This document shows, piece after piece, positions 13,295 to 62,010 of a DNA stretch of 64,000 nucleotides. A program made the position numbers and the translations under genes. Numbering within the stretch: position 1 is the first letter of the stretch; every line of letters starts with the position of its first letter. Source of the DNA: Lysobacteraceae bacterium SCN 69-320 (GTDB taxonomy: Bacteria > Pseudomonadota > Gammaproteobacteria > Xanthomonadales > Rhodanobacteraceae); assembly GCA_001725155.1 (NCBI GenBank), contig MEFP01000012.1, positions 248,001 through 312,000 of the forward strand, given 5' to 3'. The notes under the pieces are model-generated. The model saw nothing but the letters and a program-made list of their open reading frames with translations. It ran no database searches and was not told the origin of the DNA.

Positions 13295-13305
13295 GAGACT
13301 TGCCT

Positions 13306-14025: not shown

Positions 14026-14055
14026 TCGTGGATTCCTTTGCATGGGTCGGGTCGG

Positions 14056-18459
<4,404 letters not shown>

Positions 18460-46639: not shown

Positions 46640-48050
46640 TTCGATCGCGTGGCGGATCACGCTGCTGTATACCTCGCTGGCCGCTATCATTTTCGTCACC
46701 GTGGCGCTGCTCATTCATGCCTCGGTGGAGCATCACTTTGAAACGCAGGACCGCAAGGTCTGGGAGGGCAAGCTCGAGCTGATCGGACATATCCTGGAGG
46801 AATGGAAATCGCCCCAGGACGCGGCGCAGGTCACGCGCACATTGACGGATGCGATGGTGGGCCATCACAGCCTCCTGGTGCGTATCGAGTTTCCCGAGGG
46901 CAGTTTCCGCTTCGCCAGCGGTCATGCCGAGATTCCGGCGGGGCCTGGCACGTGGCGCCCTGCGCGTGATGCGAACTTGCCCTTTCAGCCGATCGCCTGG
47001 GACGGCGCGAACGCTTCATTTCGTGGCGTCGTGACCTGGGTCAGCACCGGGACGAAAGGTCAGGACATGTTGGTTTACCTGGCCTCCGATACCTCGCATC
47101 ACCAGGACTTCTTGACCTCATTCGATTACCAGCTTGCCCTGATCTGCGGCATCGCGCTGCTGCTGATGTCCGGCCTTGCCTGGATCGCGACACGCCGCGG
47201 GCTATTACCGATTCGTGATATGGCCGAAGTGGCCGAATCGATCTCCGCACAGCGGCTCCACCAGCGTCTCTCGGATGCACAAATTCCCGTGGAATTGCGG
47301 CCGCTCGCGCAGGCCTTCAACGCGATGCTCGATCGTCTCAGCGATGCGCTGCAGCGGCTGACGGATTTCTCCACCGATCTGGCGCATGAACTGCGCACGC
47401 CGATCAGCAATTTGATGATGCAGACCCAAGTCTGCCTCTCCAAACCGCGCGGCGCTGAGGACTACCGCGAAATACTCTATTCCAACCTTGAAGAGTATGA
47501 ACATCTGGCACGCATGATTGCGGACATGCTGTTTCTGGCCAAGGCCGATCACGGACTCATCATTCCTCATCGGGAATCCGTGGACCTCGCGGTCGAAGTG
47601 ACCGCGCTCTTTGACTACTACGAGGCGCTCGCCTCCGAACGTCAGGTGCGGCTGGTACAGCAGGGCGAAGGGCACATCCAAGGGGATCGCGTCATGTTGC
47701 GGCGCGCCTTCGGCAATCTGGTTGTCAACGCGATTCGCTACACGCCCGACGGCGGCACGGTCAGCGTCTTGGTGGCTGCATCGGCGACTACGGTCCTGGT
47801 GAGCGTCGAGAATCCCGGGCCCACCATTCCGCCCGATCAAATCGTGCGCATCTTCGACCGCTTCTATCGGGGCAATGCATCGCGACAACGCACCGACGAA
47901 GGCGCCGGTCTGGGGCTTGCCATTTGCCAGTCGATCGTACAGGCGCATGGAGGGGATGTGTCGGTAGTGTCCTTCGGTGGCATCACACGGTTTGCTGTGG
48001 TGTTTCCGGTGGACGCGAGGGACGGCGCGCAGCCCGCCCTCGCGGCCTGA
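46617..48050 (+). CDS. heavy-metal sensor histidine kinase (CusS/CopS-like)
   Basis: The 477-residue inner membrane kinase has helices at 14-36 and about 168-190 around a periplasmic sensor domain with His-rich VEHHFE, GHHSLL and TSHHQDF (possible metal ligands), a HAMP region, the phospho-acceptor box [10 protein letters not shown]-box [11 protein letters not shown] and G-box EGAGLGLAI. It overlaps its regulator by 23 bp and converges on the biosynthetic cluster. Metal is probably copper or silver. Confidence 0.88.
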
Positions 48051-48069: not shown

Positions 48070-48894
48070 TCACGCGGCGGCCATGTCCTGCCGTGCCAAC
48101 GCATCAGCCAATGCGTCCCACAGCGCGATGCGCGCACGGACCGCCGCTACCGCCGCACGAACCACGGCCAGCCGCCGTTCCAGATCATCGGCCACCAGTT
48201 CATCAATGATGGCTTCGGCCGCAGGGCCGTGAGCGTCGCCATCCAGCTCGATATGGCGCTTGAGGTAGTACACAAACGTGGGCACGCTCGCTTCATCAAT
48301 CGCCCATTCCGCGAGCAGCGCCGAGAACATCGTGGGGATGACGTTCTCGCGCCCATAAAAGAAACTGCCGAGCACCTCGTAAGTACTGCCGGTCTCGGCC
48401 GTGAGCAGCGTCGCTCGCACGAAGTCAGCGACGGCGGTGGGTGCCTGGGCCGATTGCAACGCCTCGCTGACACCGCGTCCGTTGCGCAGTTCGTTGAGGA
48501 ATCGGTTCACTTCCAGGGGCTCTACGCCAACCTCGCGCATGGCCTCCAGATACAAATCGTAGTGACTGGTATGGCCATCGCTCAAGGTCTCATCGGATTC
48601 TTCGCCAAGCACGATTTCATTGACAAGGCGCGCGGCTTTGGGATGTCGCGGCGGCATCCAGGGCAGAGAGACGCAGGTCAAATCCATTTGAAGCCGTTTG
48701 ACCAGCGACATGAAGTCCCACACGGCGAAGACGTGCCAGCGCATGAACAGGCGTAAATCGTCCAGGTCGCGCACCATACCGAAGACTCGGTGGTGTTGAA
48801 GGGCATGACCTGCTTGACGCAGCTCGCTGCTGGCACGCGCGTAGTGGTCGTGCAGCGTGACAGCGACGGTCGGAGAAAGTGTAGTGTCCTGCAT
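48070..48894 (-). CDS. DUF3050 protein, haem-oxygenase-like helical fold
   Basis: The 274-residue all-helical protein matches DUF3050: FMRWHVFAVWDFMSL near the start, NEIVLGEESDE in the middle, and YLKRHIELDGDAHGP near 210. The H-x3-D-x3-H arrangement resembles metal sites of haem-oxygenase-like diiron oxidases, so it may oxidise or cleave a lipid-type substrate. It is the last gene of the lipid-type cluster, 72 bp after the reductase gene. Metal binding is inferred. Confidence 0.75.
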   Translation of the reverse strand: MQDTTLSPTVAVTLHDHYARASSELRQAGHALQHHRVFGMVRDLDDLRLFMRWHVFAVWDFMSLVKRLQMDLTCVSLPWMPPRHPKAARLVNEIVLGEESDETLSDGHTSHYDLYLEAMREVGVEPLEVNRFLNELRNGRGVSEALQSAQAPTAVADFVRATLLTAETGSTYEVLGSFFYGRENVIPTMFSALLAEWAIDEASVPTFVYYLKRHIELDGDAHGPAAEAIIDELVADDLERRLAVVRAAVAAVRARIALWDALADALARQDMAAA

Positions 48895-48966
48895 GAGGGA
48901 TTCCTTGAATTCAGTGATGGGGGCAGCGCGCGCGCAGCGCGGGCAGTGAACGGCGATTCAGTGCGG

Positions 48967-49692
48967 TCAACTCGAATCGTTGCGCTCATGCAGAATGTCG
49001 AGCCAATCGCAGAAGAACTGATCCCGATGCACGCCGTGCGCTTGCAGCGCCGCGACTACCGCCCGCGACATGCCGGGCGAGCCGCTGCAGAAGATCGACC
49101 ACCCCGCCAGGCACGGGTGTTCCCGCAACGCCAGCGCATGCGGAAAACCGACGGCGCCGCGCCAGTGCGAGGGCGCGTGCTCAATGACAGGGTGGTAGTG
49201 CACCCGAGGATGCGCGCTCGAGAGTGCGCGCAGTTCGGCATCAAGAAACAAGGCGTCGGGTGTTGCCACGCCCCAGTACAACTCGATGCGGCGGGTTTCA
49301 GCGCGCGCGATCGAGGAGGCGAGCATGGCGCGCATGGGAGCGATGCCCGTGCCGCCCGCGATCATCATCACGGGACGTTGATCCGGGGGCAGACGACAGC
49401 GCCCATAGGGCATGTGGCAATCGACCGTGGCGCTCTGCCGCAGGTGATCCACCAACGTGCGTCCCGCCATCGCGTCGCTCCGGCGCTGCACTTGCAGTTC
49501 GATGTGGTCGGATTCGGGCGGGCTCGCAATCGAGAGCGGGCGAAGCGAGCCGTCGGGCATCACGACTTTGAGATACTGCCCAGCCTCATACCGCGGCACG
49601 CGCTCACGCGTGGGCTTGAGACCGACACGAAATACCGTCGGGCTCAAGGCGGCGACGTGGTCAACGGCGAGTGTGACCGCGTGGGAATTCAT
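48967..49692 (-). CDS. FAD/NAD(P)H-dependent ferredoxin-reductase-like protein
   Basis: The ATG at 49692 overlaps the SRPBCC stop (ATGA) and gives 241 residues: FAD domain with RPLSIASPPES and an NAD(P) domain with IAGGTGIAPMRAML and FCSGSPGMSR. The family (flavodoxin/ferredoxin reductase, CDP-6-deoxy reductase type) moves electrons from NAD(P)H to a metal centre. No 2Fe-2S domain is attached. In this cluster it is the likely electron source for the desaturase or the DUF3050 protein. Confidence 0.85.
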   Translation of the reverse strand: MNSHAVTLAVDHVAALSPTVFRVGLKPTRERVPRYEAGQYLKVVMPDGSLRPLSIASPPESDHIELQVQRRSDAMAGRTLVDHLRQSATVDCHMPYGRCRLPPDQRPVMMIAGGTGIAPMRAMLASSIARAETRRIELYWGVATPDALFLDAELRALSSAHPRVHYHPVIEHAPSHWRGAVGFPHALALREHPCLAGWSIFCSGSPGMSRAVVAALQAHGVHRDQFFCDWLDILHERNDSS

Positions 49693-50177
49693 GAACGGGG
49701 CTGAGCCATCGTCTGCGTCACGACCGCCGCTTCCATGCGCTCCAAGAAACCATTCATGTCGGCGAGTGTCTGGCGTGCAGCCATCACCCGCACGAGTTTT
49801 GCGGTGATGAACGAAACCGGCAGAGAAAACTGTACGTGTTCGCTGATGCACACTCGCGAGTGCGTCGGGGAGAGGTCGATGAATTGCACGCGCGCATCGA
49901 GCGCGACCGTGTCGCTCTCCTGCGCCATCGTGCGCCAGGACAACGTGCGGGGCGTTTCCCAGATGTAGCGCACGCCATAGCGCGGCTGAAACACGATTCC
50001 CAGGTCGCGTTGGGTGGTCAGTGTCCAGCGTGCCGTGTCGTCGTCGCCGCATTCAAACGTCTCGACATCACTCGTGCAGCGTGCCATCAGCCGCAGATCG
50101 TGAAACGCCCGGGCGATCGCCTCGGCTGGCACGGGCATCGTGCGCTCGGTCGCGTAGCGATACTCAATAGCCTGCAT
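49689..50177 (-). CDS. SRPBCC/START-like protein, first copy
   Basis: The 162-residue protein is a helix-grip fold candidate: N-terminal strand, PAEAIARAFHDLRLMARCT, a beta sheet core (RVQFIDLSPTHSRVCISEHVQF) and a long C-terminal helix (AKLVRVMAARQTLADMNG). SRPBCC proteins bind hydrophobic ligands in a pocket, or act as aromatase/cyclases. It overlaps the exporter gene by 14 bp and the reductase by 4 bp. The second copy is at 55703-56209. Confidence 0.68.
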   Translation of the reverse strand: MQAIEYRYATERTMPVPAEAIARAFHDLRLMARCTSDVETFECGDDDTARWTLTTQRDLGIVFQPRYGVRYIWETPRTLSWRTMAQESDTVALDARVQFIDLSPTHSRVCISEHVQFSLPVSFITAKLVRVMAARQTLADMNGFLERMEAAVVTQTMAQPRS

Positions 50178-52491
50178 GGCTGGTCTCCACGGTCATGACA
50201 GGAGACCCCATAGGGCGCGAGCGGCGCAGTGCCAGCATGGCGGGAATCAGCGTGAACGTCGCCAACCCTGAAAAGACCATGTTGACCGACACCAGGTAGC
50301 CAAAATTCTGGATCGGTGTGAACGCGGAAAAGATGAAGGCGGTGAAACCCAATACTGTTACCACGACCGTGAAGAGAATCGCTGCGCCGGACGCGGCGAT
50401 CGCCTCCACAATGGCATCAAGGGGATAAGGACAGCGTTCCCGCGCCGCACGATAGTGATAGAGAAAGTGATAGCTGAAATCGATGCCGATGCCGATGGTG
50501 ATGCCGGTGATGACGGCGGTGGAAACTTCCAAGCGCAATCCCAGCGCCGCCATCAGCGCAAACGTGGCGAGGATCGCGAGCACGATGGGGGCGGCGGCGA
50601 GCAGGGCGTAGCGCACAGAACGAAAGAAGAATGCACACAGCAAAACGATCGTGATCACCGAGGAGATGATGTTCTGGATCTTGCCGATGATGATGTAGTC
50701 CATCTGGGCGAGCCACACGAGGAGGTTGCCACCGTACTCCACGCGTATGCCGTCGCTGGGTTGCTGCGCGACATAGTCCTTGAGCTGGCGGTAGATCGCG
50801 ATGTGGGTATCTTGCTCCGACGTCTTGACCGGGATAAAAATTTTGATGCGCCGGTAGTCGTAGTCCACGAGATCGGAAAAATCTTCCGGACTGCTCGAAA
50901 TGGAATACAGCAAGAGGTACTGCGCGGCCTGTTCAAAGCTCGCGGGAATGTCGCCCGTCGATTTTCCGGCCACGACTGCGTCGATGCGGCGCAAGACATC
51001 GACGAACGACAGTGTACGACCCACCTGCGGCAACGATTCCGCGTAGGTCTGAATCGCCTGGACGCGGGCCAAGAACGCGGGATCTTGCACGCCCTCGTTG
51101 GCCTTGGCTTCGACCAGGATGTCGAAATAGCGCGACCCTCCCAGACGTGCATCGAAGTAGGCCATGTCGGTCTTGATCGGATGACCGTCGGGCAGGTACT
51201 CGGCGAAGTTGGCGCCGGTGCGCAAGTACGTGAGGGACCACAGCGTCAGCGCCAGCAGTCCCAGGTAGAGCACGAGCGTGGTCACGGGACGCGCCATGCT
51301 GGCCGCCGCCAATCGCGTCAGACCCAGTTCCGCCGCCCGCATGATGCGGGAGCTGGCTTCAAGGCCCGGCGGGCGTCCCGAGACCGCGGTGTCGCTCCAC
51401 CACCAGCGCACGAGTGCCGGCAGTAACGTGATGACAACGATCAGCGACGCGACCGTACCGATCGCGGTCACGACGCCCAGCTCCGCAATGGCGGAGACCT
51501 TGAAGACGATCAGGGAATACGCACCGACGGCGGATGTTAGGCAGGCGATCCACAGCGGATAGGCGACCTTGGCCATCGCCGTTTGCACCGCGACGGCCAA
51601 GTCGTCGCACACCAGACGTTCTTCCAGCAACGCGTGAAGAAAATAAATCGCATACGAACTGGCCGTCACCGCAATCAGGATCGGAATCGACGTGGTGACA
51701 ACCGTCACCGGATAGCCGATCCATCCCATCAGTCCCATCGTCCAGACGATGCCGATGACCGTCGATACCACGCTGGCAGCGACCAAGCGCCAATTGCGGA
51801 ACACACCCCAAAGGATCAGCAGCTGCACGATGATCGCAATCGGAAACAGCACCAGTGCGTCGTCTTGTATCCCTCGATCGATTGCTTCAGACAGGATCAA
51901 GTCACCGATGACGCGCACGGTGAACCGATTCCGATACGGCTCCACGATGCGATAGGTGTCCTCGAACACCTGCGACTGATCGGACCCGCGCACAACATTG
52001 ATCAGAATGAGCGAATCGCGCCCGTCTTCAGAAACGACCCGTCCCTGAATCAGCGGATTGGCGAGAGCCTTACGTCGTACCTGCGCCGCGTCTACCGCAG
52101 TCACCGGCGCCGCGCCATAGAGGGTATCGACCTCCAGACCGTCGTCATTGGCTTCGATATTCTTGGCGGTCGAAAGGCTTTTGATCTCGTTGCCCACGAC
52201 CCATTTGAGCCCGACAAAGGCGTCGGTGATCGCGCGCGTAGCTTCTAGCGATGTCGGCGAAAACGCGTCGTCACTCTCCAGGCTAATGAGCACGCGGTCT
52301 TTGCCACCAAAGATCGCCTCAAATTTCCTGTTGGTTTGTACGATGGGATCGTTCCCGGGCAGATCGGCATCGTCGTTGTTGCGCAGGGTCAGCGTCGAAA
52401 TACCGAACACCATGACCACCACGCACAGCGTGTGGAGCGCGATAACGAGCGCTGGCCGCAGGCCGGCCAGACGACGAAAAAAGGCATTCAC
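50164..52491 (-). CDS. MMPL/RND-superfamily lipid exporter
   Basis: The 775-residue inner membrane protein has 12 helices with two periplasmic loops, the MMPL/HpnN type: opening helix (LVIALHTLCVVVMVFG), loop 1 with IPILIAVTASSYAIYFLHALLEE after helix block 1, and the mirrored ITIGIGIDFSYHFLYHY in block 2. Such proton-driven transporters move lipids or hydrophobic products. It overlaps the outer membrane protein gene by 4 bp. With that protein and the LolA-like protein it forms an export module. Confidence 0.85.
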   Translation of the reverse strand: MNAFFRRLAGLRPALVIALHTLCVVVMVFGISTLTLRNNDDADLPGNDPIVQTNRKFEAIFGGKDRVLISLESDDAFSPTSLEATRAITDAFVGLKWVVGNEIKSLSTAKNIEANDDGLEVDTLYGAAPVTAVDAAQVRRKALANPLIQGRVVSEDGRDSLILINVVRGSDQSQVFEDTYRIVEPYRNRFTVRVIGDLILSEAIDRGIQDDALVLFPIAIIVQLLILWGVFRNWRLVAASVVSTVIGIVWTMGLMGWIGYPVTVVTTSIPILIAVTASSYAIYFLHALLEERLVCDDLAVAVQTAMAKVAYPLWIACLTSAVGAYSLIVFKVSAIAELGVVTAIGTVASLIVVITLLPALVRWWWSDTAVSGRPPGLEASSRIMRAAELGLTRLAAASMARPVTTLVLYLGLLALTLWSLTYLRTGANFAEYLPDGHPIKTDMAYFDARLGGSRYFDILVEAKANEGVQDPAFLARVQAIQTYAESLPQVGRTLSFVDVLRRIDAVVAGKSTGDIPASFEQAAQYLLLYSISSSPEDFSDLVDYDYRRIKIFIPVKTSEQDTHIAIYRQLKDYVAQQPSDGIRVEYGGNLLVWLAQMDYIIIGKIQNIISSVITIVLLCAFFFRSVRYALLAAAPIVLAILATFALMAALGLRLEVSTAVITGITIGIGIDFSYHFLYHYRAARERCPYPLDAIVEAIAASGAAILFTVVVTVLGFTAFIFSAFTPIQNFGYLVSVNMVFSGLATFTLIPAMLALRRSRPMGSPVMTVETSHAGY

Positions 52492-53753
52492 AGGGTGTAC
52501 TCCAAGCTTAGTCCGACGCGGTCATTGCGTGTGTATTGGCCGAAGAACGTGTCGGCCGGTCCACCCAACAGATCACCCGAGACCCGCATCGTCAGGTGAT
52601 CGCTCCATTCGTGTTTCCATTCGAGCATCACCGCGGAATGGCGACGGCGCGTGTCATACACCAGTTCGGTGGCCACGCTGTCGCGGCTGCTCCAGGAGAC
52701 TTCAACGCGGCCGAGCAGCGCATCGGAGAGAATGTGGCGCAAGTCTTCTTTTTCGTAACGTTGCCCCTCGCGCGTGAACTGCTTGCTGTATTCCAGCGCG
52801 ACGTAGGTTTCTTCACCGAACACGCCGTGCTCGAGATTGACGTCAAATCCGACGACGACATGGTCGTAACGATCACGCGAACCATCGCCGTAGTACAGTG
52901 ACACGCGCGTGGCTTCGGCTCTGAACACTGCTTTGCCCAACAACACCTCGGCATCGAAGCCGATCGCGGCTTTGTCCGGAAACGCTTGGTCGATCGGGAT
53001 TACCAGTCCCGCCGACGTCACGACCGGATCGCGTGCACCAAAGGCCGGCAGATTGTCTTCACCGCGGAAGTAGCTCACGGCATAGCTCGCGCCGTCGGCA
53101 TCGCGGTCAAGTTTGAGCAGCACTTGCGGCCGCGACAAATCGGTGTGGCGCGTCGCGTAGTCGGCCCAGGTGTAGGACACCGGTACCGATTGACCCTCCA
53201 CCTCCACATCACGCGGCAAACGGAAAAACCAGCGCGAATCGGTGTGGGGCATGAGACTGGGTGTGTGACGCGGCGCATAGACCGTGTCTAAGCGATATCC
53301 ACCCAGGAAGCCCACCAAGCGCAACGCGTCCGTCGCCCGCAGACGGTCGGTCGAGAGCAGCGCATCCCGGTAATCGCGCTGGTCAAAGTAGTCCGTGGGA
53401 TTAACGAGCGTGGCACGGCCGCCGCGAATCGGCTGACGGCCCAGCGTCATATCCCAAGCGCCCATCTGACGACGCACGAAGAATTCATCCACCGCAAACC
53501 GATCGTCGTACACCGCCCGGTCGGCTTCCGGGTTAGCGTTGGCCGACACTTTGACGTGCGCCGCGTAGGGCCCGATTGCGTGATCGACTTTCCAGCTCGC
53601 GTACACGCCCTGGCGATCGGAGGAATTGCCGGCCGGCGGATCCCACGCGAAGTGACTCAGGTAGGTGAGGGTGACGGTCGAGTCCCACGCCAGCGCCGAT
53701 GATGGAGCGATACTCCCCGCCAGCAGACAGGAAAGCACAACGAGACGACGCAT
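52488..53753 (-). CDS. outer membrane beta-barrel protein of the export module
   Basis: The 421-residue protein has a signal peptide (VVLSCLLAGSIAPSSALA) and alternating aromatic/polar strands through to VGLSLEYTL, as in DUF1302 or alginate-export-like barrels. GRQPIRGGRATLVNP and the ATG position fit this group. Such barrels often pair with an MMPL transporter and a LolA-like protein, giving a path for hydrophobic compounds across the outer membrane. It starts 3 bp after the LolA-like gene. Confidence 0.75.
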   Translation of the reverse strand: MRRLVVLSCLLAGSIAPSSALAWDSTVTLTYLSHFAWDPPAGNSSDRQGVYASWKVDHAIGPYAAHVKVSANANPEADRAVYDDRFAVDEFFVRRQMGAWDMTLGRQPIRGGRATLVNPTDYFDQRDYRDALLSTDRLRATDALRLVGFLGGYRLDTVYAPRHTPSLMPHTDSRWFFRLPRDVEVEGQSVPVSYTWADYATRHTDLSRPQVLLKLDRDADGASYAVSYFRGEDNLPAFGARDPVVTSAGLVIPIDQAFPDKAAIGFDAEVLLGKAVFRAEATRVSLYYGDGSRDRYDHVVVGFDVNLEHGVFGEETYVALEYSKQFTREGQRYEKEDLRHILSDALLGRVEVSWSSRDSVATELVYDTRRRHSAVMLEWKHEWSDHLTMRVSGDLLGGPADTFFGQYTRNDRVGLSLEYTL

Positions 53754-53756
53754 CGC

Positions 53757-54560
53757 TCAGCGCACCTGTGTCAGCGAACGCAATGAAATCGAGTCGGCCA
53801 CAACGCCGGTGTCGATCTGATAGCCGTCGAAAGCCATGACGGTGGTGTGCTGGTTGATCAGATCGACCATTTCCATACGAAATGGACGTATGGCGCCGGC
53901 GGAGTTGACCGGCCGAAAATCACTTGCACGGAACGATTTCGCATGGGTGCCGCTCTTATTGTAGTACTCCGCGGCCACGACCATGTGCGTGGTCGTGTCA
54001 AGCATCAGCACGCGCTTGGCGTATCCGCTTTCGGCCTTTTCCTTTTCGTTCTTCGGTGTGGCGATTATGGCGACACAACCCGTGCAATCGCTCGCCTCAG
54101 CAAAGGCGTAGTCGTAGTTCTCCGGTTCCTCCGTGACCAGATCCTCGTAGCTGAAATCCGTTCCCATGAACGTATCGGATTTGTCGGAACCGGAGATTCG
54201 ACGGGTCTTTTGCAACGCTGGTAGGTATAGCCATCGCTCGTCTTCCTTCCCCTTGTTCTCGTGCGTGAGCAACCCCGTCCCTTCAATGGACTTGGGGCGA
54301 TCGAAATACAGCAGGGATCGTTTGTCGTCATTGGCGAGCGTGACGGTGGTCCAGTGCAGGATGCGTTCCTGCACTTTGCCCTGTGCGTTCTTCAGTGTGA
54401 TAGTCACACGCGTGGTTTCATCACGCGATGCTTCGGCGCGCATATTGGCCTCGATATGCGCCAAGGGGGTTAGCGCTGTAGGCGCCGCTGCCGCGACGGG
54501 AACGGCAACGATCTTGAGCGCCAATGCCAACAGCAGGGAGGTATGGATCATTCGCTTCAT
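53757..54560 (-). CDS. outer-membrane lipoprotein-sorting-like (LolA-like) protein
   Basis: The ATG at 54560 gives 267 residues with a signal peptide (LLLALALKIVAVPVAAAA). The mature protein has the LolA-like half-barrel pattern (TTRVTITLKNAQGK, RWLYLPALQKTRRI, DFSYEDLV), typical of periplasmic carriers encoded beside MMPL transporters. It should carry a hydrophobic ligand between membranes. Its stop is 3 bp from the barrel gene start. Confidence 0.8.
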   Translation of the reverse strand: MKRMIHTSLLLALALKIVAVPVAAAAPTALTPLAHIEANMRAEASRDETTRVTITLKNAQGKVQERILHWTTVTLANDDKRSLLYFDRPKSIEGTGLLTHENKGKEDERWLYLPALQKTRRISGSDKSDTFMGTDFSYEDLVTEEPENYDYAFAEASDCTGCVAIIATPKNEKEKAESGYAKRVLMLDTTTHMVVAAEYYNKSGTHAKSFRASDFRPVNSAGAIRPFRMEMVDLINQHTTVMAFDGYQIDTGVVADSISLRSLTQVR

Positions 54561-54597
54561 AGCGTCCTCGACAGGGAAAGCGGGATGCGTGCAGGTC

Positions 54598-55722
54598 TCA
54601 ACACAACACGAGCTCCCCACCGCGCAGCCAGTGCGCCAGGGAGTCTTGCATCGACGTGCGTGAAGGCGGATGAAAAGCGAGTGCTTTGGTGGCCGTGAGC
54701 AGGTACGGCACCTCAGGATCGGTTAAGAAGCGCATGCCGCCCAGCGCTTCTGTGGCGCGTGCGCTGGTGGCGTCAATCGCATCCTGGATGGCGTAGCGCG
54801 TGAGCAGAATGCGGCCGAGCAGGCCGATGCGTTCGGCATCCGTCGTGTCGAATTCGCCCGCGAGTTGCAGCAGCGCATTCATGGCGCATTCCAGACGAGA
54901 GACCAATGCCGTCGTCTCGCTGCCGCCCGCGCGCGGTGACTGCACCAGTTTTTCGACCAGGCGGCTGGCCGCGCCCAGGTAGCTTGCCGTCAGCAACAGC
55001 TCGAACCAGATGAAGCCCGCAATCTGTACTTGGTCCAGTTCGTCGCGTGTACCGGAATACGAAATCATCTTCTCGTGCACGACCACATCGTTGAACACTA
55101 CCTCATCGCTCTGCGCGCCGCGCAGCACCGGCGCTGACCAAAACGGGCGTACTTCGATGCCCGGGGTATCCGCGGGCAAGAGCGCCACTGCCAGGCGTGG
55201 ACCACCCGCCGACGGCACGTGCAGGCTCAACGTGATAAGCTCCATCGATCGCGACAGACTGCAAGGTTTCTTGGATCCGCGGATCACAAAGCCCTCCGCG
55301 TGCGGTTCCGCGCTGAGGAAAGGCTCCAGAATGCTCGCGCCGGCCGCGCCTTCGGCAAACGCCGACGCCACCAGCATGCGGCCTTCGGCAATCGCCTGCA
55401 GCAGCATCCATTCCACGCCCGTCGACGTCTTGGCCATTTCCACGAGCGTCGCGACGGAGAACTGGTGCATGTTGATGGCGACCGCGAGCGAGGGTGAGAG
55501 CACCCCCAGCGCGCGCTGCACACGCACCAATTCGGTCGCACTCAGCCCTTTGCCACCGTGTGCCCGCGGAATGGCGAGATCCACGCCGCCGTGTGTCTTA
55601 AACACTGTCAAAAGATCCGACGCTTCGTGCTCGCGCTCCAAAAAAGGACGGGCCTGCACGGCCGCGGCAAATCCCGGCATCACTTGCTCAAGCACGGCGA
55701 ACTCAGAGCGAAGAAAGGGCAC
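54598..55722 (-). CDS. acyl-CoA dehydrogenase-like flavoprotein
   Basis: The 374-residue protein has the acyl-CoA dehydrogenase layout: helical N-terminal domain, central beta domain with VIRGSKKPCSLS, and C-terminal helical FAD domain with ATEALGGMRFL near the end. It would put a double bond into an acyl thioester, or in this setting act on a carrier-bound chain. It overlaps the second SRPBCC gene by 20 bp. The catalytic base cannot be assigned with certainty. Confidence 0.82.
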   Translation of the reverse strand: MPFLRSEFAVLEQVMPGFAAAVQARPFLEREHEASDLLTVFKTHGGVDLAIPRAHGGKGLSATELVRVQRALGVLSPSLAVAINMHQFSVATLVEMAKTSTGVEWMLLQAIAEGRMLVASAFAEGAAGASILEPFLSAEPHAEGFVIRGSKKPCSLSRSMELITLSLHVPSAGGPRLAVALLPADTPGIEVRPFWSAPVLRGAQSDEVVFNDVVVHEKMISYSGTRDELDQVQIAGFIWFELLLTASYLGAASRLVEKLVQSPRAGGSETTALVSRLECAMNALLQLAGEFDTTDAERIGLLGRILLTRYAIQDAIDATSARATEALGGMRFLTDPEVPYLLTATKALAFHPPSRTSMQDSLAHWLRGGELVLC

Positions 55723-56209
55723 GATCCGCTCCTGCGCCGGCCACGACCTCGCTCGAGACCGATATCGGGTGTGGCTGTACGTGGCCTTCGAACAGACCGT
55801 TCACAATTGAGGCGATGTTCTCGCGCAGAGCCTGCACCGCGATGGGCTCCAACAACGACGCCAGCTGGGGCAGACCCAAATCGAGGACCGCGTGGAAGGT
55901 GAGCGTCGTCGTCCCATCCTGACGCGGTTCGGCATGCCAGCCGCCATCGAAGATCGCCAGGTCGCCTTTGGTTTGCGAGAAGTGAATGCGACGCTCTTCC
56001 GGATAAAACGCATCGCGTTCATGCCAGCGCAGCAGGCCATCGCGGAACTTCACTTCCCAGAAGCTCTCGCAGCTACCGGGCTTCACGTTGTAGAGCTCGA
56101 CTTTGCGCACGGCATCGGCAAAGGTTTCGTAGGCTGGGAAGTCGGCGATGACCTCATAGACCGAGGTCGCCGGCTGGGTGATGAGGAACTGCAGATTGAC
56201 GGTCTTCAT
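55703..56209 (-). CDS. SRPBCC/START-like protein, second copy
   Basis: The 168-residue protein shows the helix-grip pattern: strand 1 (VNLQFLITQPATSVYEVIADFPAYETFADAV begins with it), a curved sheet (WEVKFRDGLLRWHERDAF) and a long last helix (LEPIAVQALRENIASIVNGLFEG), as in coenzyme-Q-binding COQ10-type proteins. It probably binds a lipid-like chain. It overlaps the aminotransferase gene by 4 bp and the acyl-CoA dehydrogenase gene by 20 bp. Confidence 0.75.
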   Translation of the reverse strand: MKTVNLQFLITQPATSVYEVIADFPAYETFADAVRKVELYNVKPGSCESFWEVKFRDGLLRWHERDAFYPEERRIHFSQTKGDLAIFDGGWHAEPRQDGTTTLTFHAVLDLGLPQLASLLEPIAVQALRENIASIVNGLFEGHVQPHPISVSSEVVAGAGADRALSSL

Positions 56210-57471
56210 GAGCGCTGTCCTTCCGTCTCGAAATAGCGTTTGTGTATGGCCGTCAGCGCGGATTCGACGGCGGCGAGCAGAAAACTGATTTCGGTATCGC
56301 TCAAGATGAGCGGCGGCGTCAGACGTGCGATCGCGTGAGCATTGAGGGAATGGGAGATCAGCACGTGCTGAGCGACCATCTCCAGCAGGAACTCGCCAGC
56401 GAAGGCATCGTCGGAGAACGCGATCGCGATCAGGAGGCCGCGTCCACGCACGGCGGTGACGAACGGAAACTGCCAGCGCTGCTGAATGGCCAGAAGGCCA
56501 TTGACGATGCGATCACCCAGGCGCCGCGCCCGCGTGGGCGCATCCAAATCGCACAGCGTGTCGATCGTGGCTTTGACGACAGCCGATACCAGCGGCGATC
56601 CGGCAAATGTCGAGGTGTGGACCAGCGGCTCGCTGTTGAACGCTTCGTAGAGTGCCGGCGTGCACAAGAGCGCGCTGACAGGCACCAGGCCACCGCTGAG
56701 CGCCTTGCCGCATAAAAGAATATCGGGCGTCACGTCTTCTTCCTGGCAATACCACCAGGCGCCAGTCCGCCCCAACCCGGTCGAAATCTCGTCCATGACG
56801 AGAAGCGCGCCGTGCTGTCGGCAGATATGCTCGACGTCGCGCAAGTAGCCCGGCGGCGGAATCACCACGCCGGCTTCGGATTGCAGCGGCTCCATCACCA
56901 CAGCCGTCGTCGCTCCGTTGTCGCCGATTGCAGTGGCGAGCGCCGCCGCGTCACCGAAGGGCACGAACGTCACGTCGGGCAACAGCGGCAGAAAGGGTTC
57001 GCGGTACTTGGGACTGTGCGTAAGACTCAAGGCGCCCAGCGTCTTGCCGTGGAATCCCCCTTCCATGGCGACAAAACGCGTGCGGCCGTTGAGTTTGGCC
57101 AGCTTGATCGCGGCCTCGACTGCCTCGGCCCCGGAATTGGCGAGCCACACGTAGCGAAGCCCCGGCGGCGCGATGGACGCCAGTGCTTTGGCCGCTTCGC
57201 CTTGCTGACGATTGACCAGTAGGCGCGAGCCCAACGCGACATTTTCCAGCTGCGCGTACGCCGCCTGCAGAATGCGCGGATGGCGTCGACCCAGCAAAAA
57301 CACGCAGTAGCCACCGCAGTCGAGGTAGCGAACACCTTGGTGATCTTCAACGTAGGCGCCATCGGAGGATTGCTCCACGCCGACATTGAGCAGACGCATC
57401 AGCCGCGCCATGCCGCTGTTGACGTGATCGTAGTGCGTGTCGATAACTTCCTCGACGTCGGCGTAAGTCAT
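56206..57471 (-). CDS. class III PLP-dependent aminotransferase
   Basis: The 421-residue enzyme has the class III fold: ANSGAEAVEAAIKLAK binds the cofactor phosphate, VMDEISTGLGRTG holds the PLP-pairing Asp, and LLCGKALSGG holds the Schiff-base Lys. Relatives are acetylornithine or omega-amino acid transaminases. Between an acyl reductase and fatty-chain enzymes it would aminate an aldehyde to a primary amine. Overlaps the reductase gene by 4 bp. Confidence 0.85.
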   Translation of the reverse strand: MTYADVEEVIDTHYDHVNSGMARLMRLLNVGVEQSSDGAYVEDHQGVRYLDCGGYCVFLLGRRHPRILQAAYAQLENVALGSRLLVNRQQGEAAKALASIAPPGLRYVWLANSGAEAVEAAIKLAKLNGRTRFVAMEGGFHGKTLGALSLTHSPKYREPFLPLLPDVTFVPFGDAAALATAIGDNGATTAVVMEPLQSEAGVVIPPPGYLRDVEHICRQHGALLVMDEISTGLGRTGAWWYCQEEDVTPDILLCGKALSGGLVPVSALLCTPALYEAFNSEPLVHTSTFAGSPLVSAVVKATIDTLCDLDAPTRARRLGDRIVNGLLAIQQRWQFPFVTAVRGRGLLIAIAFSDDAFAGEFLLEMVAQHVLISHSLNAHAIARLTPPLILSDTEISFLLAAVESALTAIHKRYFETEGQRS

Positions 57472-58493
57472 GCGGCACGCTCGCGATAGCCCGTCTGCGC
57501 CGCCCAGTAGGTCATGTTGTTGAGAATGACGGCCTCGTTGTCCGGCATCGCCGGCAAACTGAATTCGTCCGCCAGATCGTCGTAGTTGCTCGGAAACGGT
57601 TCGCTGAGATTGAAATAGCAGGCATGATCGACCAGCGCGTTGAGACGCCGACGCGCCGATTCCGGCAGGCTGGGAAGAAACACCGGAATGAACAGTCGAT
57701 CGATGACTTCCGGGTCAACGATCTTGGGCATGGCGCGCGTGTAGCCACACGATTGCGAGAAGCGGTCCATAAGCTGATGAACGTCCGCTACCCGGGTCGC
57801 CGCACGACCGCGCGTGATCCAGTATTCGCGGTGACGACCGTTGCGCCGGGCCAGCGCGGCAATCGCCTGAGCGAGCACGTCCTGCGGCACCAAGTCGACC
57901 AGCGCATCCTCCTTGGCGGGAATCATCGGCGCATACCCTTGCAGCACCGCCCCCACGATCGCGTGCAACCCTTGAAAGCGCGAGATAGCACCCGTGGCCG
58001 AATCGCCGACCACGATCGAAGGACGCACGATAGTCCAGTCACGCGCGTGGGCTTTGACCTGCGCTTCCGCCCGACGCTTGGACTCGCAGTACGTTGAGTA
58101 CTCTTTGAGGTAGGCCGGCAGTTTGAGATCGTGGGTGTAGGCCGTGCTGATGTACATGAAGCGCGCATCGAGCTCGTTGGCGATCGTCACGGCGTGCTGC
58201 GTGCCGAGCACGTTGGCACGGTGCATTTGATCTTCGGACTTGCCGAAATGGGTCAGTGCCGCGGAGTGAATAACGCAGTCGATACGACCAAAGCGCTGCG
58301 CCAATGCCGCCAGATCCAGGCCAAAGCCCGGCACGGAAATGTCGCCCTCCACAGAGACGACGCGTTCGTCGGCCACAGGCGTGGAGCGTGTGAGCGCCAC
58401 GACGCGGATGCCACGCTCGATCAGCCGGGGAACCAGGGCCGAGCCGACAACGCCGGTCGCACCCGTCAACAGCACGGTAAGGGAAGTTTCCAC
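57468..58493 (-). CDS. fatty acyl/thioester reductase-like extended SDR
   Basis: The 341-residue protein has the extended-SDR nucleotide site LTGATGVVGSAL (about 9-20), the conserved VIHSAALTHF, the active-site Y-x3-K in YCESKRRAE, and a C-terminal substrate domain. It matches the NAD-binding-4/male-sterility group, which reduces acyl-CoA or acyl carrier thioesters to aldehydes. It would feed the aminotransferase whose gene overlaps it. A plain epimerase is the alternative. Confidence 0.72.
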   Translation of the reverse strand: METSLTVLLTGATGVVGSALVPRLIERGIRVVALTRSTPVADERVVSVEGDISVPGFGLDLAALAQRFGRIDCVIHSAALTHFGKSEDQMHRANVLGTQHAVTIANELDARFMYISTAYTHDLKLPAYLKEYSTYCESKRRAEAQVKAHARDWTIVRPSIVVGDSATGAISRFQGLHAIVGAVLQGYAPMIPAKEDALVDLVPQDVLAQAIAALARRNGRHREYWITRGRAATRVADVHQLMDRFSQSCGYTRAMPKIVDPEVIDRLFIPVFLPSLPESARRRLNALVDHACYFNLSEPFPSNYDDLADEFSLPAMPDNEAVILNNMTYWAAQTGYRERAA

Positions 58494-58520
58494 AAGAGTT
58501 GCTCTGGCTAGGGGGGCGAT

Positions 58521-59354
58521 TTACGGAAAAACCGGCTGATCGAGTTCAATCTTCAACGTCCCGCGGCGAACCAGATAGTTCACGCGGACACGGATGAACG
58601 CATCGACGAAGCGCGGCACATGGCGCGCAAACCACAGCGACAATGATCCCAGGCGCGTCGTGCCGGCATCGCGGTAGTTGCGCCGGCAGGCGCGAATCAC
58701 GCCCTGCGCGGCCGCTTCCACCGGCTCTTCGAAGCTCAGCAACTTGAGCCCAAACGGTCGGATATCGATGATTTTTTCCACCGAAAGCCCTTGTCGCACA
58801 GCATCGGCATGAATGTCGGTATTGATGAAGCCCGGGTACAGCGTGGTGACACCGACCTTGCCGTGATACTGCATGCGCAGCGAATCGGAGAACGCGGTGA
58901 TCGCGCGCTTACCGGCGCCGTAGGAGGGAATCAGTGGCGCATTGATGTACGCAAAAAGCGATGCGATGTTGATGACTTTTCCGCCGGACTGCAGGAGATA
59001 CGGCATGACCGAAGCGGCCAATGCCCACGCGGACCAGAAGTTCACCTCCACACTGCGCCGCGATCCGGCCGTTGGACGAATCCCCGCGTCCTGCAACGAC
59101 AGCGTTCCGGCATTGTTGATGAGGATGTCGATACCTCCGCCGAGATAGTCCAACGCCTTGACCAGCGCGTCGCTGACCTGCGCACCCTCCGTGAGATCGC
59201 ACTGAATGAAACGTCCGGCGCGCCACGCCGCCCCGACATCACGCACATCCAGGCCGACCACACGCGCGCCTGCTTGCGCGAGCAGCTCTGCCGTCGTTCG
59301 GCCGAGACCACCGGCCGCGCCTGTGATCAGGACGCGCTTGTTCTTCAAACTCAT
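58521..59354 (-). CDS. short-chain dehydrogenase/reductase
   Basis: The 277-residue classical SDR has TGAAGGLGRTTAE (about 11-23), NNAGTLS, a catalytic Ser in INIASLF, and the motif Y-x3-K in SYGAGKRA. The C-terminal part is hydrophobic and basic (LWFARHVPRFVDAF), which may anchor it to membranes. It could reduce a ketone or aldehyde during chain processing. It is the second gene of the biosynthetic unit, 34 bp after the desaturase. Confidence 0.85.
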   Translation of the reverse strand: MSLKNKRVLITGAAGGLGRTTAELLAQAGARVVGLDVRDVGAAWRAGRFIQCDLTEGAQVSDALVKALDYLGGGIDILINNAGTLSLQDAGIRPTAGSRRSVEVNFWSAWALAASVMPYLLQSGGKVINIASLFAYINAPLIPSYGAGKRAITAFSDSLRMQYHGKVGVTTLYPGFINTDIHADAVRQGLSVEKIIDIRPFGLKLLSFEEPVEAAAQGVIRACRRNYRDAGTTRLGSLSLWFARHVPRFVDAFIRVRVNYLVRRGTLKIELDQPVFP

Positions 59355-59388
59355 GACTTCTCTCCTCTTCGGAAAAAGACCGCAACCG

Positions 59389-60171
59389 CTACGCGCTCGC
59401 GCGCTTTGACTGGGCGAGGCCGATCAAGCGCTCGGCGTCGGGAAGTCGGTCGGGGTACTCAAACCACGGCGTACGTGGCCAGAAGTGGTGCACGATATGC
59501 AGGTTGTGGTTGAACATCAGGACCTGCAGGACGCGTGAGCGAATCAGACGGGTGTGCTCAAAACGCTCCTGCGACTCCTGCGGGTAGTGCACGAGCCAGG
59601 CAACCAGCAGCTCAACCACCGCACCGGCAACGGCCAACGGCACGATCCAGATCCACACGGCTGTGGAGACACCGAACACGCCGGCCAGCAATCCGAAATA
59701 GGCCAGCTGACCACCGAGCGTGAGGACATGCTCAAACCAGTACGCGGTGCGGCCGCGCCATAGCCCCTGCCGAATCATGTAGTGGTTGTCGTGCAGCAGA
59801 CGTACCACGACCCATAGCGGCAACAACCAACGCGGGCGACGACCGATCACCCAGTCAGGATCGTGCTGGGGATGGTTGGTATAGCGGTGGTGCATCATGT
59901 GCGACAGCTTGAATAGTGGAAACGTCATGCCCTCATGAAAAGCGCACACGCGTCCCATCGCGTCATTGAGTCGCGGATGAGGACTGGCGACACCGTGAAT
60001 CGCATCGTGACTGACGCTGTACATCGAATAGAGCAGTACAGCGTTGGTGGCTGCCGCGGCGGCAAGCGGAAGGAACCCCACGTAGCACAGCAGGAGCGAT
60101 GCATAGAAAACCGCAACTGTTCCCACGAACAACCAGAACGTTGGATGAGCAAACCACGGTCGTTGTGTCAT
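59389..60171 (-). CDS. membrane fatty acid desaturase
   Basis: The ATG at 60171 gives 260 residues; a GTG 12 bases upstream is possible. Four or more helices carry the three diiron histidine boxes: HDAIH, HMMHHRYTNH and HNLHIVHH. It inserts double bonds into an acyl chain using electrons from a reductase partner. It is the first gene of the unit and lies 250 bp downstream of the AraC regulator gene on the same strand. Confidence 0.88.
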   Translation of the reverse strand: MTQRPWFAHPTFWLFVGTVAVFYASLLLCYVGFLPLAAAAATNAVLLYSMYSVSHDAIHGVASPHPRLNDAMGRVCAFHEGMTFPLFKLSHMMHHRYTNHPQHDPDWVIGRRPRWLLPLWVVVRLLHDNHYMIRQGLWRGRTAYWFEHVLTLGGQLAYFGLLAGVFGVSTAVWIWIVPLAVAGAVVELLVAWLVHYPQESQERFEHTRLIRSRVLQVLMFNHNLHIVHHFWPRTPWFEYPDRLPDAERLIGLAQSKRASA

Positions 60172-60421
60172 GCGAAAGACCACATTAAGGCGTTACCCGT
60201 CACAGCGCGACAGGCGAAGCCGATTGATCAAGGATTTGCTGAGCGGCGCCCCCCGGCGTCCGTCTCAGCGGCGTGGAGAGATTGTGTACGCGTTGTTGGC
60301 GTGTAGCTTGTATGCAGCGGAATCAGGGATGCTGTTCTTGCGCGCCGCTTGCACAAATCGGAACCGGGTTCTCATCACGATGCTGAATAATCCCGTATGC
60401 CATTCGTCGAACGAAATACAT

Positions 60422-61213
60422 CTATACCGCTTGATTTGTATCGATGCTAGCGCGTCGCACGAGCGCAGAGTCAAAGACGTTGGACGGCGGCGCGCCGAAC
60501 ATGCTGCGAAACGTGCGCGAGAAATGCGCGGAATCCGTAAATCCAGCCGTCGCTGCCGCCTCGGTGAAGGAATTGCCGGCCAACACGCAACGCAAGGCTG
60601 CGCGCAATTTGCACCACTGGCGGTAACGTTGCGGAGAAATTCCTAGTTCGCGTTCGAAGAGTTTGCGCAGGTAGCGCGACGTTACGCTGAGGCGTTCAGC
60701 AACATGATCGAGCGAGTCGGCATCGGTCAGATGATGATCGATGTAGTCCAACGCACAGGCAACGCGCCGATCCACAGCCCGGTGCCGCCACGCACCGCCT
60801 GTAACAGCAGCCGTGAGTGCACGCACCAACGGCTCGCCGTCGATCTCACTGGAGTCCATGAACACGCGTCGCGCAGCATCAACGCGATCATGGGGCACCG
60901 GCACGAACTCGCCGGCGACCCACGGGTACTGCGCATTGATCGTACGTCCCAGTTCGCTGGCCGGTTCCAGGAATATGAGAAGCGTGTCAGTGGCCAAAGT
61001 CGTGCCGCGCACGCAATGCGGCATGGTCGACGGAATGATCAACGCATCTGCACAATGCTCCTGTCCGTGGCTATCGGAAACGCGGACGGCTCCCTCGGTC
61101 GCTATTGCAATCTGAATAACGTAGTGGGCATGCAGGTCATTGTCGTGCACATCGCCGACAAAGTATGCCGCGCCCGAGCCAATCCAGGTGTTGCCGCTCC
61201 ACCGCCTTGACAT
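60422..61213 (-). CDS. AraC-family transcriptional regulator
   Basis: The ATG at 61213, behind a GGGAGGGG site, gives 263 residues. The N-terminal cupin-like domain (HAHYVIQIAIATEGAVRV, then DALIIPSTMPH) probably senses a small molecule; the C-terminal part has two helix-turn-helix units (LDHVAERLSVTSRYLRKLFE; SFTEAAATAGFTDSAHFSRTFRSMFG). It is the obvious candidate regulator of the desaturase-led unit 250 bp downstream. Inducer unknown. Confidence 0.88.
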   Translation of the reverse strand: MSRRWSGNTWIGSGAAYFVGDVHDNDLHAHYVIQIAIATEGAVRVSDSHGQEHCADALIIPSTMPHCVRGTTLATDTLLIFLEPASELGRTINAQYPWVAGEFVPVPHDRVDAARRVFMDSSEIDGEPLVRALTAAVTGGAWRHRAVDRRVACALDYIDHHLTDADSLDHVAERLSVTSRYLRKLFERELGISPQRYRQWCKLRAALRCVLAGNSFTEAAATAGFTDSAHFSRTFRSMFGAPPSNVFDSALVRRASIDTNQAV

Positions 61214-61350
61214 GGTTCCCCTCCCAGGTATCGGCCGGTGACGCATCCTGGCAAGCAGCCCGGGAGCGAGGAATGACCCGAACATTACAAACTTGTCATT
61301 TTCAGAGGGCGGCGCGGCTCGGACGGCCAGCACAAGAAAGGAACTTCGGA

Positions 61351-62010
61351 ATGATTCCGCTGAATACAAGCCTCTGCCGTAGCCCGATGAGAGCATCGAG
61401 CCCTCTCGCCGTCGGAGTCGCAATCGCCATGGAATTGACGTCAGAACAAGTGCATTGGATCGGAGGGGCTGCGTTTGTCGCGGTGGCCTTGTTGTCGCTG
61501 GCGCAAGCAGTGGGGCTACTCACGACGCGATGGATTTCCTGGCTGCTACCGATCTTACTGATCGGTTATGGCATCGAGAGCGGAGCGGACTGGTGGATCC
61601 ACGGTGAGGCGCGACCCGCGAACTATCTGGTGCAGGCGTTGCAGCACGTGGCACAGGGGAGCGCGATGCTGATCGCGGGCGTGGTCGAGGTCCTGCTGCT
61701 GCGCGGTCGGCTGCGCGCCCCAGGCTGGTCGTATGTGTTGCCTGTGGCTCTCTTGCTAGTGGGCGTTGGGTTCTGGGTCCATCAGCAGCACACTGCCAGC
61801 GTCGATCCGATGGTCATGATGCTGCAGCATCGGGCCATCGCAATCAGCCTCACCGTAGCAGCTCTGGGGCGTGCCGCCGCAAGCGCGCTCAGTGCCCGCA
61901 CGGGCGTGCTGGAGGCTGGCTGGTGGTTGCCGCTGCTGATCTTTGGACTGTTGATGTTGACGTACACCGAAACCAGCCTGCCGATGTCGGGAAGCATGCC
62001 AGGACACTGA
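61351..62010 (+). CDS. membrane protein of unknown function
   Basis: The ATG at 61351 has AAAGGA 8 bases upstream and gives 219 residues with six or seven helices. A cytoplasmic-side WWIHGEARP and a His/Met pair region (WVHQQHTASVDPMVMMLQH) and the end SMPGH could bind metal. It is divergent from the AraC gene. I recognise no family. Confidence 0.6.
   Translation: MIPLNTSLCRSPMRASSPLAVGVAIAMELTSEQVHWIGGAAFVAVALLSLAQAVGLLTTRWISWLLPILLIGYGIESGADWWIHGEARPANYLVQALQHVAQGSAMLIAGVVEVLLLRGRLRAPGWSYVLPVALLLVGVGFWVHQQHTASVDPMVMMLQHRAIAISLTVAALGRAAASALSARTGVLEAGWWLPLLIFGLLMLTYTETSLPMSGSMPGH

What the first reader, a model, noticed from the sequence alone, without database searches (positions are those of the whole stretch)
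48070..60171. Twelve-gene cluster that may build and export a fatty amine or related lipid
Seen: desaturase, SDR, thioester-reductase-like SDR, class III aminotransferase, SRPBCC, acyl-CoA dehydrogenase, LolA-like, barrel, MMPL exporter, SRPBCC, flavin reductase and DUF3050 genes, with several overlaps of 4-20 bp, one strand, and an AraC regulator upstream. Known: tambjamine-type pathways desaturate an acyl chain, reduce it to an aldehyde and transaminate it. Inference: a similar chain is made here, without PKS, NRPS or pyrrole genes.
Basis: partly seen in the sequence, partly recalled or inferred. Interest (0 to 1): 0.8.

Follow-up and report, generated by a model that had tools for sequence, protein, structure and literature searches.

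The report
Gene cluster making nitrogen-oxidised fatty lipid
A twelve-gene bacterial operon very probably turns a fatty acid into a fatty amine, oxidises its nitrogen with enzymes of two kinds known from unusual nitrogen-containing antibiotics, and exports the product; a related Pseudomonas cluster of unknown product is tied to antibacterial activity.

Summary
The operon is real: twelve minus-strand genes (60183 to 48070), syntenic in Tahibacter aquaticus and in one genome of another family of the order. A thioester-reductase-like SDR plus class III aminotransferase should give a fatty amine, probably not the end product. The 'acyl-CoA dehydrogenase' has Phe where prolyl-carrier dehydrogenases have the catalytic Glu (34 of 34 aligned sequences) and is related to VlmH-type amine N-hydroxylases of azoxy clusters; a Fre-like flavin reductase lies in the operon. 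'DUF3050' is a homologue of HamA (PDB 9vwb, 50% identity), a diiron enzyme of diazeniumdiolate (fragin) clusters. The same seven biosynthetic gene types form 'cluster 17' of Pseudomonas donghuensis P482, linked to antibacterial activity; I found the set in 11 of 318 genomes of a genus taken to be Pseudomonas. Best reading: a long-chain amine oxygenated on nitrogen, exported by MMPL/LolA-like/barrel proteins instead of EmrAB-TolC. Against a true ham- or vlm-type cluster: no AurF, A-T-R NRPS or HamE orthologue, and no convincing VlmA or VlmB, was found. The product is inferred, not shown.

The parts
60422..61423 (-). AraC-family regulator (true start probably further in, about residue 66)
   Evidence: HTH_18/HTH_AraC; homologue upstream of the cluster in G003, G061 and in 11 of 11 Pseudomonas loci
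59389..60183 (-). membrane fatty acid desaturase (GTG 60183 or ATG 60171)
   Evidence: FA_desaturase E=5e-30; His boxes HDAIH, HMMHH, HIVHH; 47% to the Nostoc cluster gene
58521..59354 (-). short-chain dehydrogenase
   Evidence: adh_short E=1e-34, YGAGK motif; 41-45% homologue in 11 of 11 Pseudomonas loci
57468..58493 (-). stand-alone thioester-reductase-like SDR (acyl thioester to aldehyde, inferred)
   Evidence: NAD_binding_4 E=2.5e-36; profile best PDB match MxaA E=4.6e-28; YxxxK
56206..57471 (-). class III aminotransferase (aldehyde to amine, inferred)
   Evidence: Aminotran_3 E=7e-88; PDB relatives putrescine aminotransferase and 4ppm
55703..56209 (-). SRPBCC protein 1, part of the conserved reductase/aminotransferase/ACAD cassette
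   Evidence: Polyketide_cyc E=1.2e-13, Polyketide_cyc2 E=5e-7; homologues in Nostoc, Streptomyces, Leptospira and Pseudomonas loci
54598..55722 (-). ACAD-fold flavoprotein, VlmH-type amine N-hydroxylase (inferred)
   Evidence: 41-43% to three ACADs of VlmB-containing clusters, 46% to the Nostoc C052 one; Phe at the place of the Glu of 5zw0
53757..54620 (-). LolA-like periplasmic lipid carrier (start may be 54560)
   Evidence: LolA_like E=8.3e-48
52488..53753 (-). putative outer-membrane barrel
   Evidence: no Pfam match; strand-rich but low-confidence model, pLDDT 52; conserved in G003 and G061
50164..52491 (-). MMPL/HAE3-type inner-membrane exporter
   Evidence: MMPL E=8.9e-32; TIGR00921 E=2.3e-67 but below its cut-off
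   Evidence: no Pfam match; CoxG E=0.026 for a homologue
48967..49692 (-). Fre-like flavin reductase, proposed partner of the N-hydroxylase
   Evidence: phmmer best PDB match flavin reductase 1qfj E=8.6e-31; start
48070..48894 (-). DUF3050 = HamA-family haem-oxygenase-like diiron enzyme
   Evidence: DUF3050 E=5.6e-86; PDB 9vwb HamA E=1.6e-83, TM 0.84/0.93 and 50% identity; E99, H111, E183, H214, D218, H222 invariant in 18 of 18 rows

Best explanation
The operon makes and exports a long-chain, nitrogen-oxygenated amine. Proposed steps: an acyl thioester from primary metabolism is reduced to the aldehyde by the stand-alone thioester-reductase-like SDR; the class III aminotransferase converts it to a fatty amine; the VlmH-type ACAD flavoprotein, fed with reduced flavin by the Fre-like reductase, hydroxylates the nitrogen; the HamA-family diiron enzyme (DUF3050) oxidises the hydroxylamine further or joins a second nitrogen to it; the desaturase and the SDR modify the chain. 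SRPBCC 1 holds the greasy intermediate (guess). MMPL, LolA-like and barrel proteins carry the product across the envelope. Shown here: gene content, synteny, families, the missing dehydrogenase base, the HamA homology, and that the gene set recurs as 'cluster 17' of Pseudomonas. Inferred: every reaction, their order, and the product class.
For: Operon syntenic in G003 and G061. ACAD: of 72,556 plasmid records 65 match; I opened 11 of the 65, and 5 are valanimycin/azodyrecin-like (VlmB-like, flavin reductase and DUF2156 genes). The Glu of 5zw0 (Ala in the variant 6af6) is Phe in 34 of 34 aligned sequences, the window's included. Azodyrecin's proposed path is dehydrogenase, PLP transaminase, VlmH/VlmR-type N-hydroxylation, desaturase (PMC9379638 passages). 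DUF3050 is the HamA family; HamA and HamE are hypothesised to form the N-N bond after the hydroxylamine (PMC11705231 passage) and were dispensable for the hydroxylamine itself (PMC11659414 passage). Flavin reductase. Eleven Pseudomonas loci hold AraC, ThR, AT, SRPBCC1, ACAD, SDR, a desaturase and DUF3050, as does P482 cluster 17 apart from AraC, which its Table 1 does not list; its SDR mutant lost antibacterial activity on glycerol.
Against: No chemistry. No characterised VlmH sequence was in hand; the link is by cluster context and two papers' annotations, and a single-sequence search hits prolyl-carrier dehydrogenases first. The plasmid ACAD nearest to the window's is in Nostoc C052, whose cluster is not of the VlmA/VlmB kind. 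DUF3050 also occurs without such neighbours: 17 of 23 neighbourhoods lack the mgo set; a disruption of mgoB lowered but did not stop mangotoxin. No flavin reductase match in the 11 Pseudomonas loci, and the Streptomyces one is of another family (PF01613). No acyl-ACP synthetase or carrier protein in the operon (largest gap 72 bp). P482's SDR mutant was near wild type on LB and, against D. solani, on glucose; the main text holds no word beginning 'complement'.
Confidence: 0.62

Rival explanations
1. Tambjamine-like: the ACAD is an acyl desaturase, and the end product is an exported unsaturated fatty amine; DUF3050 and flavin reductase tailor the chain.
For: ThR and AT fit it; ACAD also matches RedW/PigA-type dehydrogenases; the aminotransferase also matches PigE; UndA, which acts on fatty acids, is the next structural neighbour of DUF3050 after HamA.
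Against: Dehydrogenase Glu replaced by Phe in 34 of 34 aligned sequences; relatives at 41-44% lie in azoxy-type clusters; a membrane desaturase is already present; a HamA family member is kept in 14 of 14 close clusters. TamP itself could not be compared.
Confidence: 0.15
2. Lipid diazeniumdiolate (N-nitrosohydroxylamine): the HamA-family enzyme installs the second nitrogen on the alkyl hydroxylamine. (A special case of the best explanation.)
For: HamA homology; HamA/HamE are hypothesised to act after the hydroxylamine in fragin; the related Nostoc cluster has an NO synthase and no listed DUF3050; natural products with such a group exist (nitrosoxacins, named; their fatty chain is recalled).
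Against: No HamE orthologue: SRPBCC1 shares only the broad Pfam family Polyketide_cyc2 with it and profile comparison fails, as for the other small protein; none found in G000, G003, G061 while the control genome matches. The role of HamA is itself unproven.
Confidence: 0.25
3. Aliphatic azoxy lipid made as in valanimycin/azodyrecin, with the last genes elsewhere in the genome. (A special case of the best explanation.)
For: Front half like that proposed for ady and seen in Streptomyces sp. NBC_00887.
Against: VlmB absent from G000, G003, G061 with two positive control records; VlmA only as 21-28% matches inside long open frames in G000 and G003 and not in G061; VlmO not found but without a control.
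Confidence: 0.1

Closest known systems
'cluster 17' of Pseudomonas donghuensis P482 (PMC8154892) and the ten-gene cluster of P. putida W15Oct28 (PMC4219678)
   Same: NAD-epimerase (ThR), aminotransferase, SRPBCC/cyclase, isobutylamine-N-hydroxylase-like ACAD, SDR, desaturase; DUF3050 named for P482, 'hypothetical protein' for W15Oct28; same order ThR-AT-SRPBCC-ACAD in the 11 loci read here
   Different: EmrA-EmrB-TolC or RND exporter there, MMPL/LolA-like/barrel here; here an extra flavin reductase and an extra small protein; desaturase not close (26-28% in 2 of 11 loci, no match in 9); product unknown
aliphatic azoxy clusters: valanimycin (vlm), azodyrecin (ady), and Streptomyces sp. NBC_00887 as read here
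   Same: VlmH-type ACAD and a flavin reductase; in NBC_00887 also a class III aminotransferase and an SRPBCC; ady is said to have an aldehyde-forming enzyme, a transaminase and a desaturase
   Different: no VlmA or VlmB found here; flavin reductase of another family; HamA-family enzyme instead
diazeniumdiolate and related clusters ham / pvf / mgo
   Same: HamA-family DUF3050; reductase and aminotransferase functions (ham); AraC regulator near ham
   Different: no AurF N-oxygenase, no A-T-R NRPS, no HamE orthologue; fatty chain expected instead of valine
tambjamine fatty amine branch (recalled)
   Same: reductase and transaminase logic
   Different: no carrier protein or acyl-ACP synthetase in the operon; ACAD of VlmH type

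Membership tests
cluster-17 type (P482/W15Oct28) | seven biosynthetic gene types ThR, AT, SRPBCC, ACAD, SDR, desaturase, DUF3050 | tested here: met
   window families; counterparts in 11 of 11 Pseudomonas loci; Pfam check of one of them (L139); P482 Table 1; the desaturases share the Pfam family, not close homology
cluster-17 type (P482/W15Oct28) | EmrA-EmrB-TolC export genes | tested here: not met
   11 of 11 Pseudomonas loci have them; window has MMPL, LolA-like, barrel instead
cluster-17 type (P482/W15Oct28) | antibacterial product | not testable with these tools
   mutant data exist for P482; in W15Oct28 inactivation attempts failed
aliphatic azoxy cluster (vlm/ady) | VlmH-type N-hydroxylase | tested here: met
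   41-43% identity to three ACADs of VlmB-containing clusters; by sequence only, activity not tested
aliphatic azoxy cluster (vlm/ady) | VlmB | tested here: not met
   0 of 3 genomes G000, G003, G061; 2 of 2 control records match
aliphatic azoxy cluster (vlm/ady) | VlmA (aminoacyl-tRNA transferase, PF09924) | tested here: not met
   none in the operon; elsewhere only 21-28% matches in long open frames of G000 and G003
aliphatic azoxy cluster (vlm/ady) | VlmO | tested here: inconclusive
   0 of 3 genomes, no control in that call
diazeniumdiolate cluster (ham/pvf/mgo) | HamA (DUF3050) | tested here: met
   tree puts window group, Pseudomonas cluster-17, mgo and two other rows (22) apart from 15 others, 100/100
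diazeniumdiolate cluster (ham/pvf/mgo) | AurF-type N-oxygenase and A-T-R NRPS | tested here: not met
   no such Pfam match among the operon's proteins, while an mgo locus gives both
diazeniumdiolate cluster (ham/pvf/mgo) | HamE orthologue | tested here: not met
   (control genome G377 matches); SRPBCC1 is in the same broad Pfam family, so a stand-in is not excluded
tambjamine-type | acyl-ACP synthetase and carrier protein with the reductase/transaminase | tested here: not met
   none among the operon's twelve genes and no room for one in the gaps; definition recalled
tambjamine-type | TamP-like acyl desaturase | not tested
   no TamP sequence was available

The most novel reading that the evidence does not exclude
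The operon makes a membrane-soluble lipid diazeniumdiolate (or another N-N lipid) by a route not described in the papers read here: VlmH-type flavin N-hydroxylation of a fatty amine followed by a HamA-family diiron enzyme working without AurF, HamE or an NRPS, and this chemistry explains the antibacterial activity of Pseudomonas 'cluster 17'. A portable cassette (reductase, aminotransferase, SRPBCC, VlmH-type ACAD) would then be combined in different bacteria with different third modules: HamA family, NO synthase, or VlmA/VlmB.
Probability: 0.25. Interest if true: 0.78.

Novelty: new variant of a known kind. Interest (0 to 1): 0.6.

Why it matters
It gives a testable chemical class to an antibacterial cluster that the papers read here leave without a product. 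It offers a simple system in which HamA, whose role in diazeniumdiolate formation is open, acts beside a different N-hydroxylase and without a HamE orthologue. And it points to a four-gene module (reductase, aminotransferase, SRPBCC, VlmH-type ACAD) seen in proteobacteria, a cyanobacterium, an actinomycete and a spirochaete plasmid.

Tried and rejected
Tambjamine reading: lowered because of the ACAD evidence. Azoxy reading: lowered because VlmB and a convincing VlmA were not found. HamE as one of the two small proteins: no homology found beyond the broad Pfam family of SRPBCC1; these profiles are shallow, so the comparison is weak. ThR as query in the phylum: 297 of 398 genomes have some match at E<=0.001, but besides the window's own the best is 96.8 bits; of those loci I opened five, and apart from the reductase and two-component genes they hold no homologue of the window's genes. 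The genome-contig scan returned only Tahibacter aquaticus. The barrel model was too poor for a fold search. G716 and G569 have a related ACAD but not this cluster. Dropped from the trees: rows whose tblastn match covered under 70% of the query. The ACAD tree has long branches and does not settle which relative is nearest.


Full report
Observation. Twelve ORFs lie on the minus strand between 60183 and 48070. Gene overlaps are 4, 4, 20, 23, 4, 14 and 4 bp (one depends on the start codon). The flavin reductase starts most likely at 49692. An AraC-family gene lies upstream. Downstream is a CusS-like two-component pair on the other strand.

Conservation. All twelve genes and the regulator are in the same order in G003 and in G061, a genome of another family of the order; in G061 the reductase is split by a frame change. 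In 99 genomes (own included) the aminotransferase has an orthologue in 3 (714-944 bits; the next best is 210). The ACAD profile finds, at E<=1e-30, 3 of 398 genomes in the order (the same three) and 3 of 369 in the class (own, one with 428 bits, one with 107). So the cluster is rare and patchy there, which suggests horizontal spread (inference).

The front half. The reductase is nearest, among solved structures, to MxaA, a thioester-reductase domain (its class recalled), and keeps YxxxK. The aminotransferase is nearest to putrescine aminotransferase, with 4ppm next (NCBIfam lists PigE second, below cut-off). Both fit acyl thioester to aldehyde to amine.

The ACAD. As a single sequence it hits L-prolyl-carrier-protein dehydrogenases (6af6, 5zw0) first; as a profile it hits DszC first. 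In 5zw0 a Glu stands where the variant 6af6 has Ala; I take it as the catalytic base (recalled). The window protein has Phe there, as do all 34 aligned sequences, the window's included. In 72,556 plasmid records 65 match the ACAD. The best is Nostoc sp. C052 (45%), then Streptomyces. I opened 11 of the 65: 5 are valanimycin/azodyrecin-like Streptomyces clusters with VlmB-like, flavin reductase and DUF2156 genes; 4 hold a class III aminotransferase and an SRPBCC gene in the stretch shown (Nostoc sp. C052, Streptomyces sp. NBC_00887, S. clavuligerus, Leptospira plasmid p3), and 3 of these 4, all but NBC_00887, also a homologue of the reductase; NBC_00887 is in both counts. Of the other three, Nostoc sp. 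UHCC 0926 and the Agrobacterium plasmid show no such aminotransferase; P. phymatum has only a distant one (37%) and a gene of VlmA's Pfam family. Azodyrecin is proposed to arise by dehydrogenase, PLP transaminase, two-component flavin N-hydroxylation and desaturase (passages of PMC9379638). The Fre-like reductase in the window could supply reduced flavin (inference).

DUF3050. The best solved relative is 9vwb (E=1.6e-83), titled 'HamA, a Heme-Oxygenase-Like Enzyme' (50% identity, TM 0.84/0.93, from a model with mean pLDDT 92.5). Further down are UndA, CADD, and the N-oxygenases HrmI and RohS. E99, H111, E183, H214, D218 and H222, which match by spacing the diiron ligands described for the family (PMC4520260 passages; the match is mine), are invariant in 18 of 18 sequences. 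HamA/PvfA/MgoB belong to diazeniumdiolate or related signal clusters (passages). In ham, only hamB, hamF and hamG were dispensable for the signal; in mgo, disruption of mgoB lowered mangotoxin without stopping it. In 398 genomes of the phylum, own included, 22 carry DUF3050. Of 23 neighbourhoods examined, the window's own not among them, 6 hold the AurF-like and NRPS-like ORFs (4 of them also the HamE-like ORF) and 17 do not (Pfam check of one, L076). The window's genome has a second copy elsewhere. The tree separates 22 rows (window group, Pseudomonas cluster-17, mgo, and two others) from 15 others with full support; inside, the joins are weaker and the program warns of long branches.

Known counterpart. 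P. putida W15Oct28 has a cluster with AraC, epimerase, aminotransferase, cyclase, VlmH-like protein, SDR, desaturase, a hypothetical protein and an efflux set; attempts to inactivate it failed (passages). P. donghuensis P482 'cluster 17' has the same biosynthetic genes with DUF3050 and EmrA-EmrB-TolC (Table 1). On minimal medium with glycerol its SDR mutant lost all activity against Dickeya solani and about 90% against P. syringae; on glucose there was no difference against D. solani, and on LB it was near wild type; the efflux mutant kept about 40% (glucose) and 30% (glycerol). No word beginning 'complement' occurs in that main text. In 318 genomes of one genus (unnamed in the tool; I take it to be Pseudomonas from its mgo operons and the cluster-17 match) 20 have the ACAD at E<=1e-30 (21 places). 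I opened all 21: 11 loci from 11 genomes hold the full set with AraC and EmrAB-TolC; the other ten are of other kinds. Searches for DUF3050 or for a product of cluster 17 showed none in their listings; only open-licence papers are held.

Evidence against a ham or vlm cluster. HamE-like sequences show no homology to the operon's small proteins beyond SRPBCC1's broad Pfam family and are not found in G000, G003, G061, while the control matches. VlmB is absent with working controls; VlmA-like matches are only 21-28% inside long open frames of G000 and G003; VlmO and NO synthase searches were empty but without a control.

Verdict. The finding is a real, conserved cluster of a known but uncharacterised kind with a different exporter. 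Most likely product class: a long-chain amine oxygenated on nitrogen. The diazeniumdiolate form is the boldest version that the evidence allows.

Noticed in passing
L105 (Nostoc sp. C052 plasmid pC052_E) 10599-21620: A related cluster (reductase 36%, desaturase 48%, aminotransferase 48%, SRPBCC 39%, ACAD 45%) has a nitric oxide synthase oxygenase gene and no listed DUF3050, plus FemAB-like, glycosyl- and formyltransferase genes.
   Followed up: partly
L123 (Leptospira interrogans plasmid p3) 6941-12494: ACAD, class III aminotransferase, SRPBCC and a reductase homologue close together (23-33% identity to the window's), with glycosyltransferase genes nearby.
   Followed up: partly
L107 (Streptomyces sp. 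BHT-5-2) 10853-15212: SRPBCC, reductase and aminotransferase homologues with a FemAB-like gene but no ACAD match in 29 kb.
   Followed up: no
L077 (own genome, G000:C30:608700-628600) 9553-10398: A second DUF3050 gene, 56% identical by tblastn, beside an AAA ATPase that looks like HslU (name by eye) and a hemerythrin-domain protein.
   Followed up: no
L148 and L152 (L149 by BLAST matches only): Pseudomonas clusters with a VlmH-type ACAD, an 873-875-aa ORF beginning as a class III aminotransferase, a carrier protein, a ferredoxin-type reductase and a desaturase (Pfam for L148).
   Followed up: partly
L157 (G1221:C48) 9356-14529: A Pseudomonas locus with ACAD, long aminotransferase ORF, and VlmO (41%) and VlmA (37%) homologues: a likely azoxy cluster outside actinomycetes.
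   Followed up: no
L110 (Paraburkholderia phymatum pBPHY01) 9591-13125: A distant ACAD (34%) beside a protein of VlmA's Pfam family, LPG_synthase_C: perhaps another azoxy-like cluster.
   Followed up: partly
L017 15225-16285: The reductase gene in G061 is split between two frames; assembly error or decay not told apart.
   Followed up: no
L117 (G569:C191): A very distant ACAD (24%) next to LolA-like (31%) and MMPL (25%) homologues.
   Followed up: no
45644-48050: Response regulator and CusS-like sensor kinase directly downstream on the plus strand, kept beside the cluster in G003; in G061 the kinase is kept and the regulator was outside the stretch read.
   Followed up: no
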